This document shows, in pieces, positions 10,509 through 15,328 of a stretch of 64,000 nt of DNA. The stretch's first letter is position 1. The number at the start of each line of letters is the position of its first letter. Source of the DNA: Alphaproteobacteria bacterium (GTDB lineage: Bacteria > Pseudomonadota > Alphaproteobacteria > JAAEOK01); contig JAAEOK010000085.1 in assembly GCA_024244705.1 (NCBI GenBank), positions 1 through 64,000 of the forward strand. Reading direction: 5' to 3'. A program made the position numbers and the translations under genes. The notes below the pieces were generated by a model. The model had not been told where the DNA came from and did no database searches. It worked only from the letters and a program-made list of their open reading frames with translations.

Positions 10509-12455
10509 TTATTCCGGCAGTCCGGCGGCACGCAAAGCGTCAGTGTAGCGATCCAGATCCTCCTTGGAACGGAAGGGCATGCCCCGGGTATAGGATCGGA
10601 TTGCGAAATCAGGTCGTATGTCGAGAATTTGCTGTGCTGCGCGCTGGGCGTCCGCCGTCCGACCGGCGTCCTGATAGGCGAATGCGATGGTGACTGTGTT
10701 CGACGACCGCAGGGTATCGTTTTCGGCCCGCTCGATGCCGTCCTGAGACCACTCCACGGCGAGCTTGGCTTCCCCTTTGAAGGCATAGTTCCGCGCCATG
10801 TAAAGCGAATACCAGCTTGGATAGACCGGACTCAGGTGCATTGCCTTTTGCAGAAGCCCGATCGATTCGTCGTAATTGCGATCGTAAAATTGGATCAAGG
10901 CATTGATCGCCAGCAGGTTCGCATTGTTGGGGCCGAGCGCCGCGGCCCGGTTGCCGGTCCTTTCAGCGACATCGAAATCGCCCCGAATCTGATAGATGTA
11001 GGCTTCGACCATCAGCAATTCGGCCTTTTCGGCATCGGTCATGACGCCATCCATCGCGGCGGCTTGGCGAAGGATATCGGCCGCCATTTCGAGCGAGGCT
11101 TCCTTCGATCCCGATAACCCCCACTGAGCGTCGATGATATGGGTCTGGGCCTCGAGCAGCAGTGCCTGCCGATAACCCGGATCGAGTTTGAGGATCTGTC
11201 GGACCAGACGCCGGGTCTCGACCATCGCCCCCCTGGTGAATCGGCGATATGTGCCCTCGGCCTGCAACAGCAGAAGATAGGCATCGACGTTGGTGGTGCC
11301 GGTTCCCCTCACCACTGCCTGATCGCCTTCGGTCAATTGAACCTGGAGCGACACCAGCACCTTGAGGGCGATCTCATCTTGGATCGCGAATATGTCGTCC
11401 AGAGCGCGGTCATAGCGCTGGGTCCACACATAATTCCCGGTCGTCCCATCGATCAACTCGACGGTAGCGCGCACACGCCCGTTCGATTCCTGCAGCGTGC
11501 CGTCGAGGATATAGCGAACGCCCAACGCCTTGCTGGTCTCCCGGGGGTCGGTCCTTTCGCCCTGATAAGCGTGGGTCGCACTGCGATTGATGACGAACAG
11601 GGTCGGCACCTGACCGAGGGCGGTGATAAGGGCCGCCGTCATGCTGTGGGCGAGCATGGCGGTATGTTCGCCCGGCGTGAGGCTCTCGAACGGCATCACT
11701 GCGATCGAAGGCTGATCGGGGAGTGGAAGTTCAGCGGTGGCTCCGGGGCCGCGCCCTTCTGTGGGTGTCCACGGTGCCCACCAAACGAGGCCTCCGGCCA
11801 GCAACAAGACGATGACAATGCCTGCTGCCGCAACCCATGTTGAAAGGGACCGCCGAGCGGTCGAAATCCCCGTTTTCGGCGTGACCTCGGAGGCGGGCGT
11901 GGAGACCCGCTGGCTTGCCGTAGCAAACGCGGCGGCCTTGTCATCGAGTGCGATACCATAGCCGTCCGTTGGCGCCGGCTCGGCATTGGTCCTCGGGCCG
12001 GTCAGGGACGACAGATTGAGGTCGGAGTTTTCGGCGATGTCGTCACGAACCCGCCCGGATATGGCGATTCCTCCGAGATCCGCCAGTTCGGTCAGGTTCT
12101 CGGCCGTAGTCACCGGCTCCCCCTGAACGGTGCCGCCCGCGTCCGAAATGTCGCCGTGATCGATACCGATTCGGTATTGGAGCTGCCGGTCCTCGCGCAA
12201 GGGCCGGTTGCGAACCCGCATCGTCGATTGCATGTCGATGGAGAAAGCGACAGCATCTTCGGCCGACTTGAATTCGATCAACACGCGACCGTCGAGCATC
12301 CGAGCAATCCGACCATGAAATTTCGCGGCGCGGGGTTCGATGACCTCCAATTTGCACGCCTTCAGAGATTTCATCGTACGACGGGGCTCCACTCGCACGA
12401 GACGCGAATAGCCCAAAATATTGGCGGCAAGAATCGTGGCGTGCCGAGATTGCAA
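10509..12455 (-). CDS. Degenerate class III cyclase domain, membrane segment, TolB-like and TPR protein
   Basis: A 648-residue membrane protein. Residues 5-140 resemble a class III nucleotide cyclase domain (ILAANILGYSRL; RMLDGRVLIEF; YRIGIDHGDI), but the first metal-binding Asp is Asn12, so catalysis is doubtful. A membrane helix spans about 206-226. A TolB N-domain-like region starts near residue 250 (IAVMPFESL) and includes LGVRYILDGTLQ. TPR-like helical repeats fill residues 380-620. This layout is common in alphaproteobacterial orphan cyclase-like proteins. It is divergent from the kinase/TolB/TPR protein, with which it shares the last two modules, suggesting joint function or duplication. 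It may bind nucleotide as a sensor instead of making cAMP (inference). Confidence 0.78.
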   Translation of the reverse strand: MQSRHATILAANILGYSRLVRVEPRRTMKSLKACKLEVIEPRAAKFHGRIARMLDGRVLIEFKSAEDAVAFSIDMQSTMRVRNRPLREDRQLQYRIGIDHGDISDAGGTVQGEPVTTAENLTELADLGGIAISGRVRDDIAENSDLNLSSLTGPRTNAEPAPTDGYGIALDDKAAAFATASQRVSTPASEVTPKTGISTARRSLSTWVAAAGIVIVLLLAGGLVWWAPWTPTEGRGPGATAELPLPDQPSIAVMPFESLTPGEHTAMLAHSMTAALITALGQVPTLFVINRSATHAYQGERTDPRETSKALGVRYILDGTLQESNGRVRATVELIDGTTGNYVWTQRYDRALDDIFAIQDEIALKVLVSLQVQLTEGDQAVVRGTGTTNVDAYLLLLQAEGTYRRFTRGAMVETRRLVRQILKLDPGYRQALLLEAQTHIIDAQWGLSGSKEASLEMAADILRQAAAMDGVMTDAEKAELLMVEAYIYQIRGDFDVAERTGNRAAALGPNNANLLAINALIQFYDRNYDESIGLLQKAMHLSPVYPSWYSLYMARNYAFKGEAKLAVEWSQDGIERAENDTLRSSNTVTIAFAYQDAGRTADAQRAAQQILDIRPDFAIRSYTRGMPFRSKEDLDRYTDALRAAGLPE

Positions 12456-12625: not shown

Positions 12626-15328
12626 TTGCCATATGAGCGGGCTTTTCGGTATAACCCCCACTCGGCGGGCCGGGCGTCCGTAACAAGGCTTTTCGAACCG
12701 AATCCGCGGCGGGTCGCCGCCGCGTGCAATCGAGAACGCAGGCGGGTCGAGTTGAAGAGACAGAAAACATCAAGCCAATCCGGCGACCGGTCGACTCTTC
12801 CCTGGCCCGAGGAATACCGGGCTTTCGAGCCCGTCATCCGCGACCAATGGGGCGTTCAGGGCGAGATCTATCTGAATCGATTGTTGAGCGGGAAATCCGG
12901 TGCCGCGGTCTATTCGGTTGATATTACGGCCAAGGATTTCGCCGGCCAGGCCATTCTCAAGTTCGACCGCGTATCTTCCGCGGATTGGTCGGAAGAGAGG
13001 GAATTCGAGCGCCATCGGCGGGCTTTCGAGGTCGATCCGGACTACGCCCAAGAGCATTTGCCGCGAGTCGTGCATGCCCTGCACCATGGCGAGGATACGG
13101 CCATCCTATCGACCATCGCGGCGCGCGGGCTCGAATACGCTACGCCGTGGGCCGACTGCGCCCACAAACCGCAAGTAAACATCGCCCGACGCCTATCCGC
13201 GGACCTGCTGGAGTGCTGGAACCCGAACTACCGGCTCGATCCGGAGATGCTGGAGCCGGTCAATCTCTTGGAGAGTTGGCTCGACTATCGCCTCGATTCG
13301 GACGAGGGCGGTAAGATCCACGAGTTTCTCGGCGAGGATTGCGGCCTGCCGCCGGAGGAGCCGACTTACATTTTCGAGGGCCAGTCCTATCCCAACCCAT
13401 TGGCCTTCGCGAAAAACGTCGTCCCGTTGAAGCGCGAAACTATTTGCATTCGCGGCATTCGCGGCAACTTTCATGGCGACTTGCATGGCTACAATATCTT
13501 GATTTCCAAGCCATCCGCCGCCAAGCCCAAGTACTACCTCATCGATCTCGACTTCTATCGTGACGATGGGTTCCTCTTTTTCGATCATGCCTATCTCGAG
13601 CTGACCTATTTGATCCAGGGACGGGCGCAGGCTACGCCGGATCACTGGGCGTCGATCCTCGGCAATCTGAGCCGGCAGCGGGCGGCCGCCCAAAGGGCCG
13701 GTCTCACCGGCGACGATATGGGTCTCGTTCAACTGGTCCACACGATCCGCCGGGAGGTCGGCGGCTGGATCGACCGTCATGAACCCAATCGGCTCTCCTA
13801 TCTAGAGAGCCAATATTTGCTCGCGCGAATCGCCGCGGGCTTGGCTTTGGTGCACCAGAAGCGGCCCCACGCCAGCCGTTGCATGGCATTGACCTATGCG
13901 GCGGCGAACGTCGCCGACTATTTGCGGCTTCATCGCCTCGATTGGCCAAAACATGGGCCGGAACTCTCGTTTCGACCGCCGGACAGCGGCATGGATACCG
14001 AAGGTTCGCGCGCGGGTGCGACAGCCGCCGGTCGGCCCGGTTCCGGTTCCGCCGCCATTGCGACGGCGGAACCATTGCCTCTTAAGCCGGCGGTCGCGGT
14101 GCTACCCTTTGAATTTCTCGGTGCCGAGACCGACCACGAGTACATCGCCGATGGCATAGGCGACGAGTTGATTGCCGAGCTTTCCCGTATCGATTGGTTG
14201 ATGGTCATCGCGCGTACCTCCAGCTTCGCCTACAAGGGGCGGGATCTTGGCGTGAAGAAGATCGGGCAGGAGCTCGGCGTAGACTACATTGTCGAAGGAA
14301 CGGTTCGCGAAACCGGACGCCATCTTCGGGTGACGGCACAGCTTAGTGGGGCTCATGATTCGCGGCAGATCTGGTCGGATCGCTACGACCTGGACCTCGA
14401 TGTCGACGACATCTTCATCCTGCAGGATGAAATCGCACGAGCGGTCGCCTACACCATCGACAACAGGATTTGGGATAAAGAAAGCGACCGCGCCCGGCGC
14501 AAGGCGCCAGAGAACCTAGACGCCTGGGAACTTTACATGCGCGCCGCATGGCATTTCTATCAATTTACCGACGACGGCGATGCGGAGGCCACGAAATTCG
14601 CCAACGACGCCGTCGCGCGTTGGCCGCAATACGCTCCGCCATATGCGCTGCTCGCCTTTCTCGCTACGCGAGCGGTGCTGAGAGGCAAGGCGGAACATCC
14701 TGTGAAAAACATGATGCGGGCGAACGAATATGCCTTGAAAGCAGTCGGGCTGGATCACGACAGCAGCGTTGCTCACAACGCCCTGTCCCGCGTCTATATG
14801 ATGGAGGGGCGGCACGATTTGGCGGTCACCGAGGCGGAATCGGCCGTCGCGCTCGATCCCAACTCTTCGAGCGCCTATCTCAGCTTGGCGGCCGTGTTGC
14901 TCGTTGGTGGAAGGGCGGCCGAGGCGCTGCCAACGCTCAATATGTCGATCCGCCTGAGCCCCAAGAGTCCACTACAGCCGGTCAAGCTTTTCATCAAGAC
15001 GATGTGTCTGTTCATGCTCGGCAAATATGAGGAGGCCGAGGAAGCGGCGCGCCTTGCGATCAAGGAACGGAATGTATTGCCGGTCGATTACCTCGGTCTG
15101 GCGCTCGCCCTTGTCGGACAGGACCGGCTTGCCGAGGCCCATGCCGCCATAGACAAGGCGCGAGAAATGCGGCCCGAATGGAGCATCGCCCATCTGACTG
15201 CGAGTGTGGAGAGCTTGGACAAGGAGTACGTGGCCACGGTGATCGAAGGGTTGGAGAAAGCCGGATTGCCGGCCAACAGCCCGTCGCCGGGCGGCCCGGT
15301 ACAAGACGAGCCCGCGAAACGGTCGTGA
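12626..15328 (+). CDS. APH-like kinase domain fused to TolB-like and TPR modules
   Basis: Up to 900 residues. The region about 65-440 looks like an aminoglycoside-phosphotransferase/TCAD-type kinase fold: a nucleotide-loop region GKSGAAVYSVDI and a Lys in QAILKFDR; then a catalytic HGDLHGYNILI at residue 283 and a metal-binding LIDLDFY near 308. From about 487 a TolB-like domain begins (VAVLPFEFLG, LGVDYIVEGTVRE), followed by TPR repeats to the end. No membrane helix is visible. The start is uncertain: ATG 12626 gives 42 residues of low-complexity Arg-rich sequence before the conserved part, and a TTG at 12752 could be used instead. The gene is divergent from the cyclase-like gene sharing the same C-terminal modules. 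I know of no named protein with this exact order. Confidence 0.75.
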   Translation: MPYERAFRYNPHSAGRASVTRLFEPNPRRVAAACNRERRRVELKRQKTSSQSGDRSTLPWPEEYRAFEPVIRDQWGVQGEIYLNRLLSGKSGAAVYSVDITAKDFAGQAILKFDRVSSADWSEEREFERHRRAFEVDPDYAQEHLPRVVHALHHGEDTAILSTIAARGLEYATPWADCAHKPQVNIARRLSADLLECWNPNYRLDPEMLEPVNLLESWLDYRLDSDEGGKIHEFLGEDCGLPPEEPTYIFEGQSYPNPLAFAKNVVPLKRETICIRGIRGNFHGDLHGYNILISKPSAAKPKYYLIDLDFYRDDGFLFFDHAYLELTYLIQGRAQATPDHWASILGNLSRQRAAAQRAGLTGDDMGLVQLVHTIRREVGGWIDRHEPNRLSYLESQYLLARIAAGLALVHQKRPHASRCMALTYAAANVADYLRLHRLDWPKHGPELSFRPPDSGMDTEGSRAGATAAGRPGSGSAAIATAEPLPLKPAVAVLPFEFLGAETDHEYIADGIGDELIAELSRIDWLMVIARTSSFAYKGRDLGVKKIGQELGVDYIVEGTVRETGRHLRVTAQLSGAHDSRQIWSDRYDLDLDVDDIFILQDEIARAVAYTIDNRIWDKESDRARRKAPENLDAWELYMRAAWHFYQFTDDGDAEATKFANDAVARWPQYAPPYALLAFLATRAVLRGKAEHPVKNMMRANEYALKAVGLDHDSSVAHNALSRVYMMEGRHDLAVTEAESAVALDPNSSSAYLSLAAVLLVGGRAAEALPTLNMSIRLSPKSPLQPVKLFIKTMCLFMLGKYEEAEEAARLAIKERNVLPVDYLGLALALVGQDRLAEAHAAIDKAREMRPEWSIAHLTASVESLDKEYVATVIEGLEKAGLPANSPSPGGPVQDEPAKRS

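What the first reader, a model, noticed from the sequence alone, without database searches (positions are those of the whole stretch)
12626..15328. APH-like kinase domain fused to TolB-like and TPR modules
One protein carries an intact-looking HGDLHGYN catalytic loop and DLD metal motif, followed by the same TolB/TPR modules as the divergent cyclase-like protein. This resembles kinase-like domains in ternary-complex conflict systems (TCAD9-type), but the fusion is unusual. The pair could form a two-protein sensor or defence system.
Basis: partly seen in the sequence, partly recalled or inferred. Interest (0 to 1): 0.62.

Follow-up and report, generated by a model that had tools for sequence, protein, structure and literature searches.

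The report
Conflict-type kinase fused to TolB-TPR module
One bacterial gene joins an intact small-molecule-type kinase, related to kinases that other bacteria attach to immune-like switch proteins, to a different kind of sensor module; it is rare but real and conserved in four genomes, although its job has not been tested.

Summary
In detail: 12626-15328 (+), probably starting at TTG 12752, encodes an APH-fold kinase (about residues 58-445 of the 900-aa ORF), a linker, a TolB/HilA-like alpha/beta domain and TPRs. The whole architecture recurs in three other alphaproteobacterial genomes (37.5-39.5% identity over about 832 aa), under strong purifying selection among the three close relatives. 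All catalytic residues (K112, E126, D285, N290, D307) are invariant in ten diverse homologues. The kinase is not a generic APH. It forms one clade (96/96) with kinases fused to nSTAND/STAND-TPR, beta-propeller or trypsin-like domains, partly in defence islands. Its closest outside relatives pass Pfam's TCAD9 cut-off; the window protein itself just misses it (36.4 and 39.4 against 40 bits). The 'TCAD9-type' lead is therefore largely right by homology, but no vWA-MoxR ternary system is present. The 'pair' idea fails: the cyclase-like neighbour is not conserved beside the kinase, is one of about a dozen TolB-TPR proteins in the genome, and has the least similar TolB-TPR module of those compared. 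Most likely this is a single-protein, ligand-gated kinase in which TolB-TPR replaces the usual STAND chassis. It is a new variant of a known kind; defence or ordinary stress signalling is open.

The parts
12752..15328 (+). Kinase-TolB-TPR protein, 858 aa from the likely TTG start (ORF open from TTG 12626, 900 aa)
   Evidence: Full-length homologues in three genomes; start inferred from homologues; purifying selection
12797..13960 (+). APH-fold kinase domain of the TCAD9-related clade; boundaries approximate
   Evidence: TCAD9 profile 39.4 bits; clade of ten homologues
12890..12913 (+). Nucleotide-loop-like motif GKSGAAVY
   Evidence: Conserved in the TolB clade and the nSTAND relatives; position
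12950..12967 (+). AILKFD, with the invariant beta-3 lysine (K112 of the 900-aa ORF)
   Evidence: Invariant in ten homologues; position
13388..13408 (+). YPNPLAF: family-specific NP motif ahead of the catalytic loop
   Evidence: N and P invariant in ten homologues
13472..13495 (+). Catalytic loop HGDLHGYN (D285, N290)
   Evidence: Catalytic residues invariant in ten homologues; position
13538..13558 (+). LIDLDFY, with the metal-binding D307
   Evidence: D307 invariant in ten homologues. The third residue of the 'DLD' triad is not: close relatives have DLA
14084..14515 (+). TolB/HilA-like alpha/beta domain
   Evidence: PRK12370 match over residues 479-837; predicted beta-alpha-beta-alpha-alpha-beta-beta-beta order at mixed confidence, about pLDDT 52-81; boundaries approximate
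14530..15270 (+). C-terminal TPR superhelix
   Evidence: Pfam TPR families; mostly pLDDT 75-91 and TPR structural matches
10509..12455 (-). Divergent neighbour: degenerate class III cyclase-like domain, TM helix, TolB-TPR. Judged not a functional partner
   Evidence: Catalytic positions altered; TM 'TWVAAAGIVIVLLLAGGLV'; not conserved next to the kinase

Best explanation
A cytoplasmic, single-protein, signal-gated kinase. Shown by sequence: an intact APH-fold kinase of the TCAD9-related clade at the N-terminus, a flexible linker, and a TolB-like plus TPR module at the C-terminus, with no transmembrane segment. Inferred: the TolB-TPR module binds a stress or invasion cue (protein, peptide or other ligand) and allosterically switches on the kinase, which phosphorylates a low-molecular-weight metabolite or a protein to change cell state. 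It would do this as STAND-TPR and beta-propeller regions are thought to do in its relatives, the TolB-TPR module having replaced the STAND chassis. The substrate is unknown. A conflict or defence role is the leading guess for the kinase clade as a whole and is not shown for this gene.
For: The architecture is conserved in four genomes, with the kinase the best-conserved module (47% identity, against 36-39% TolB and 31-33% TPR, and 15-20% in the linker), and purifying selection on all three modules. K112, E126, D285, N290 and D307 are invariant in ten homologues. The kinase forms one clade (96/96), separate from nine generic APH-fold kinases, with kinases fused to nSTAND_NTPase5-TPR, STAND-TPR, beta-propeller or trypsin-like domains. 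hhalign gives E 5.5e-16 over 333 columns against the actinobacterial kinases; 12 controls give 2.7e-4 or worse over at most 79 columns in either direction. The relatives' contexts are defence-like: type I R-M plus DUF1016 nuclease (L053), an NTPase-TPR protein matching PDC-M54A (L054), an S-4TM effector (L042). The protein lacks a TM segment. Aminoglycoside-kinase-like small-molecule kinases are listed among effectors of MoxR-vWA ternary systems (PMC7159879, PMC8195603).
Against: No defence gene adjoins any of the four TolB-fused copies. The window neighbours examined are metabolic or of unknown function, and L017 sits beside genes that look like a PhyR/EcfG general stress response. In the same genome TolB-TPR is attached to cyclases and a SARP-like activator, which are signalling proteins. 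The kinase model was poor (pLDDT about 20-60), so the fold rests on sequence profiles. No PADLOC kinase model was hit.
Confidence: 0.55

Rival explanations
1. An ordinary stress or nutrient regulator. TolB-TPR senses an envelope or metabolic cue and the kinase phosphorylates a house metabolite or protein, parallel to the cyclase-TolB-TPR and SARP-TolB-TPR proteins of the same genome; it has no role in conflict.
For: About a dozen TolB-TPR proteins in this genome, mostly with intact-looking cyclases and one SARP-like activator. The TolB-kinase genes are lone genes among metabolic or stress genes.
Against: The kinase belongs to a clade whose other members sit on STAND, propeller or trypsin chassis, partly in defence islands. 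Distribution is very sparse: 1 of 385 class genomes by profile and 1 of 394 in the Ruegeria family. At least one copy is plasmid-borne.
Confidence: 0.35
2. The kinase protein and the divergent cyclase-like TolB-TPR protein form a two-protein system.
For: The genes are divergent, about 300 bp apart, with C-terminal modules of the same type. Ruegeria SCSIO 43209 also has a cyclase 1.6 kb from the kinase.
Against: No cyclase near the kinase in L017, nor upstream in L018 (contig ends just downstream). The Ruegeria cyclase is a different protein (23%). The two TolB-TPR modules are each other's least similar among the paralogues compared. The neighbour's cyclase is degraded.
Confidence: 0.06
3. A metabolic or antibiotic-modifying APH kinase that happens to carry a TolB-TPR tail.
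For: APH-fold active site; PGAP names the Ruegeria copy 'phosphotransferase'.
Against: No APH hit for the window protein, and the one relative with a printed score is below the Pfam cut-off. Generic APH kinases score far higher on APH and align only around the catalytic loop.
Confidence: 0.04

Closest known systems
TCAD9 (Pfam PF19974, 'Ternary complex associated domain 9')
   Same: Best Pfam match of the kinase (39.4 bits as a domain). Its nearest outside relatives, L053 and L054, exceed the cut-off (43.4 and 47.7).
   Different: The window protein is just below the cut-off. No vWA, MoxR or VMAP partners found nearby; TolB-TPR instead of NTPase chassis.
Kinase-nSTAND_NTPase5-TPR proteins (L053, L054), not matched by PADLOC models
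   Same: Kinase 31-32% identical over about 410 aa with the same N-terminal position; C-terminal region with TPR matches.
   Different: A STAND NTPase in place of TolB; the L053 copy lies beside type I R-M genes.
Actinobacterial kinase-STAND-TPR, STAND-TPR-kinase and kinase-propeller proteins (Streptomyces sp. NBC_00690 plasmid, Nonomuraea gerenzanensis)
   Same: Homologous kinase with shared WN, PNP and catalytic motifs; helical or propeller repeats as presumed sensors.
   Different: 22-24% identity; NTPase or propeller chassis; two of the Streptomyces proteins flank an S-4TM effector gene.
Cyclase-TolB-TPR and SARP-TolB-TPR regulators of the same genome
   Same: The same TolB-TPR module (26-37% identity for the kinase protein's module).
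   Different: Their N-terminal output domains are cyclases or DNA-binding activators, not kinases.
APH-like effector kinases of MoxR-vWA ternary systems (Kaur et al. 2020, PMC7159879; follow-up 2021, PMC8195603)
   Same: Active APH-superfamily kinase in a multi-domain signalling protein.
   Different: Their sequences were not compared here; the ternary partners are absent.

Membership tests
Pfam TCAD9 (PF19974) | Score at or above the curated cut-off of 40 bits | tested here: not met
   36.4 bits for the whole protein, 39.4 for the isolated domain
Pfam TCAD9 (PF19974) | Homology to sequences that do pass the cut-off | tested here: met
   31-32% over about 410 aa with L053 (43.4 bits) and L054 (47.7 bits); sister in the tree 98/97
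Pfam TCAD9 (PF19974) | Closer to this family than generic APH-fold kinases are | tested here: met
   The TCAD9 profile also rings at up to 34 bits on generic APH-fold kinases, but the six scanned score better on APH or other families; nine controls fall outside the clade, support 96/96
MoxR-vWA ternary conflict system | vWA (with MoxR) genes beside the domain | tested here: not met
   No vWA (PF13519) match on contig C85; eight flanking genes are not vWA or MoxR
APH (PF01636) | Score at or above the cut-off of 23.2 bits | tested here: not met
   No hit for the window protein; L016 20.1 bits
Catalytically competent APH-fold kinase | Beta-3 Lys, alpha-C Glu, catalytic Asp, Asn and metal Asp present | tested here: met
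   K112, E126, D285, N290 and D307 invariant in ten homologues
Catalytically competent APH-fold kinase | Kinase fold | tested here: inconclusive
   AlphaFold models of the kinase were poor; no PDB sequence match below E 0.3
Two-protein cyclase/kinase TolB-TPR system | Conserved adjacency of the two genes | tested here: not met
   downstream of L018 not testable because the contig ends
Anti-phage defence system | Protection against phage or plasmid | not testable with these tools
   No experiment possible; no PADLOC kinase model hit

The most novel reading that the evidence does not exclude
A conflict-type kinase effector that exchanged its STAND NTPase switch for a TolB-TPR switch: an NTPase-free, one-gene defence or stress kinase in which ligand binding by TolB-TPR gates small-molecule or protein phosphorylation.
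Probability: 0.35. Interest if true: 0.7.

Novelty: new variant of a known kind. Interest (0 to 1): 0.47.

Why it matters
It shows one kinase clade riding on at least five different chassis (nSTAND-TPR, STAND-TPR, beta-propeller, trypsin-like, TolB-TPR). That suggests the kinase is a portable output domain and TolB-TPR a portable input module. The substrate of TCAD9-type kinases is not stated in the papers read here. A compact, soluble 833-858 aa version without an NTPase would be an easier protein in which to look for it.

Tried and rejected
Class-wide scan with the single protein found only weak fragments besides the window. Viral-contig scans and the phage collection found nothing, so no phage-borne copy is known. 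The genome-contig scan used only two peptide patterns, so its two hits are a lower bound. A TCAD9 profile hit alone was rejected as evidence, because the profile rings on ordinary APH-fold kinases in 50 of 142 genomes. AlphaFold on three-row alignments gave no usable kinase model, and fold searches with the full model returned TPR proteins only; absence of a kinase match there means nothing. Literature searches found no paper describing a kinase-TolB-TPR fusion in the library searched. A duplicated-pair origin of the two neighbouring genes was rejected.

Full report
Observation. The ORF at 12626-15328 (+) is real and intact: 900 aa from TTG 12626. The next in-frame start seen, TTG 12752, gives 858 aa and is the likelier one, because homologues carry only 6-9 residues ahead of the conserved WPEEY motif. 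Pfam finds several TPR families and, at 36.4 bits, TCAD9 over residues 245-330, around the catalytic loop. The middle and C-terminal region matches HilA/EilA-type regulators in NCBIfam (1.2e-14), the basis for calling it TolB-like; Pfam itself has no TolB hit. D307 of the latter is conserved; the second Asp of 'DLD' is not, since close relatives have DLA.

Relatives. The fusion is not unique. A Ruegeria sp. SCSIO 43209 plasmid carries a full-length homologue (WP_223118376.1, annotated 'phosphotransferase'; 38% over 832 aa). The genome collection gave two more, in an alphaproteobacterial MAG (L017) and Ruegeria spongiae (L018). All four have kinase, linker, TolB-like domain and TPRs in the same order. 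Among the three close relatives dN/dS is about 0.04-0.08 in all three modules where dS is not saturated, and 0.3-0.5 in the linker. Against the window the kinase is best conserved (47%), then TolB (36-39%), then TPR (31-33%). The family is rare: 1 of 385 genomes of the class by profile and 1 of 394 in the family of R. spongiae; no viral or phage copy was found. The window genome had no closer relatives among the 96 searched: all were 'same class'.

What the kinase is. A TCAD9 hit alone is weak evidence, since that profile rings at up to 34 bits on ordinary APH-fold kinases in 50 of 142 genomes, none over the cut-off, and the six of these scanned score better on other families, mostly APH. Three stronger tests were run. 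First, a tblastn search of plasmids with the R. spongiae kinase found a Streptomyces plasmid protein. Its kinase domain is followed by a region with a weak PQQ/propeller-like match; next to it lie an S-4TM effector gene (PF18159, 1.6e-80) and a second kinase-STAND-TPR protein. From it a Nonomuraea STAND-TPR-kinase protein was reached. hhalign between the window family and these gives 98.6% probability, E 5.5e-16 over 333 columns; 12 control APH-fold kinases give no better than 2.7e-4 over at most 79 columns in either direction. Second, the seven-row profile found more members in Pseudomonadota outside the class. L053 and L054 are 1492 and 1467 aa kinase-nSTAND_NTPase5 proteins with TPR matches, and L055 is a kinase with a weak trypsin-like match. 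L053 and L054 pass the TCAD9 cut-off (43.4 and 47.7 bits) and are 31-32% identical to the window kinase over about 410 aa. Third, a maximum-likelihood tree puts all ten in one group (96/96) apart from nine controls, with the four TolB fusions together (99/99) and the two nSTAND proteins as sister (98/97). Invariant in all ten are K112, E126, D285, N290 and D307 (900-aa numbering), the NP of the PNP motif, and a C-terminal Q..L...A pattern; the WN motif is nearly so. The kinase is thus a TCAD9-related, catalytically intact clade member. It is not filed as a TCAD9 member because it misses the curated cut-off and lacks vWA-MoxR partners.

Context. L053 sits beside HsdR, HsdS and a DUF1016/YhcG nuclease gene, and L054 follows an AAA_16/NACHT-TPR protein whose N-terminus matches PDC-M54A. 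Such neighbours are typical of defence islands. The TolB-fused copies lack them. The window neighbours are amidase, NamZ, a carboxymuconolactone-decarboxylase-like protein, a Cys/Met-metabolism PLP enzyme, a DUF3482 GTPase and a DUF2868 protein, plus two without Pfam hits. L017 lies near genes that by eye resemble PhyR and EcfG, and a ParA/RepA-like gene.

The pair. The neighbour (10509-12455, -) has a degenerate cyclase-like domain (AADxxGYS to AANILGYS; VNVAARLE to VTTAENLTE) and a TM helix before TolB. No cyclase or TolB protein lies near the kinase in L017, nor upstream in L018, whose contig ends about 150 bp downstream. Ruegeria SCSIO 43209 has a cyclase 1.6 kb away, but it is a different protein (23%). 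Among the four loci only the kinase gene itself is shared; other cross-matches are TolB/TPR paralogues, out-of-frame or antisense frames of the kinase gene, or one pair of LysR-type ORFs. The window genome holds about a dozen TolB-TPR matches, and of the paralogues compared the neighbour's module is the least similar to the kinase's. The two-protein hypothesis is not supported.

Mechanism. Shown: domain order, intact active site, conservation, clade membership, no TM segment in the kinase protein (maximum 19-residue hydropathy 1.44 against 2.39 in the neighbour). Inferred: cytoplasmic location, gating by TolB-TPR, and phosphorylation of a small molecule or protein. Kaur et al. report active APH-superfamily kinases among effectors of MoxR-vWA systems and suggest low-molecular-weight substrates (PMC7159879); their 2021 follow-up again lists small-molecule kinases (PMC8195603). 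A CRISPR-mining paper names TCAD9 among domains of CRISPR-linked CARF/SAVED and vWA-MoxR-VMAP systems (PMC10910872). The defence role is a guess by kinship; a stress-regulator role is nearly as likely.

Limits. Kinase structure models were poor because only three rows were allowed. The genome-contig scan was narrow, so the count of four is a lower bound. Functional claims need the bench.

Noticed in passing
window 10509-12455 (-): Cyclase-like domain with altered metal and transition-state positions (probably inactive), a TM helix, then TolB-TPR; its TolB-TPR part is therefore probably periplasmic, unlike that of the kinase protein.
   Followed up: partly
G000 contigs C53, C88, C9, C98, C82, C64, C75, C1, C23 (L004-L012): About a dozen TolB-TPR matches in one 4.5 Mb genome; most full proteins examined carry intact-looking class III cyclases and one (L004) a SARP/BTAD-like activator domain.
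   Followed up: partly
L042 3419-14880 (Streptomyces sp. NBC_00690 plasmid NZ_CP109010.1): Kinase-propeller protein, S-4TM pore-forming effector, and a divergently oriented kinase-STAND-TPR protein side by side: looks like an undescribed conflict system; no PADLOC hit for the kinase-propeller protein.
   Followed up: partly
L053 1910-11912: Kinase-nSTAND-TPR protein directly beside HsdR, a DUF1016/YhcG nuclease and HsdS: candidate defence gene not matched by PADLOC-DB 2.0.
   Followed up: partly
L054 1706-9654: AAA_16/NACHT-TPR protein with a PDC-M54A-like N-terminus followed by a kinase-nSTAND-TPR protein: a possible two-gene defence unit.
   Followed up: no
L056 2012-7255 (-): 1748-aa protein with an APH/TCAD9-like kinase region fused to a DEAD helicase resembling Hachiman HamB and PDC-M23B models: another unusual kinase chassis.
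   Followed up: no
L055 3260-6037 (-): 926-aa protein joining a TCAD9-related kinase to a trypsin-like peptidase domain; the catalytic loop reads HMDFHGDN instead of HGDLHGxN.
   Followed up: no
L016 399-1991 (-), WP_170683955.1: Hypothetical protein on the Ruegeria plasmid with TolB/TPR similarity to both window proteins, about 10 kb from the kinase gene; N-terminal domain not examined.
   Followed up: no
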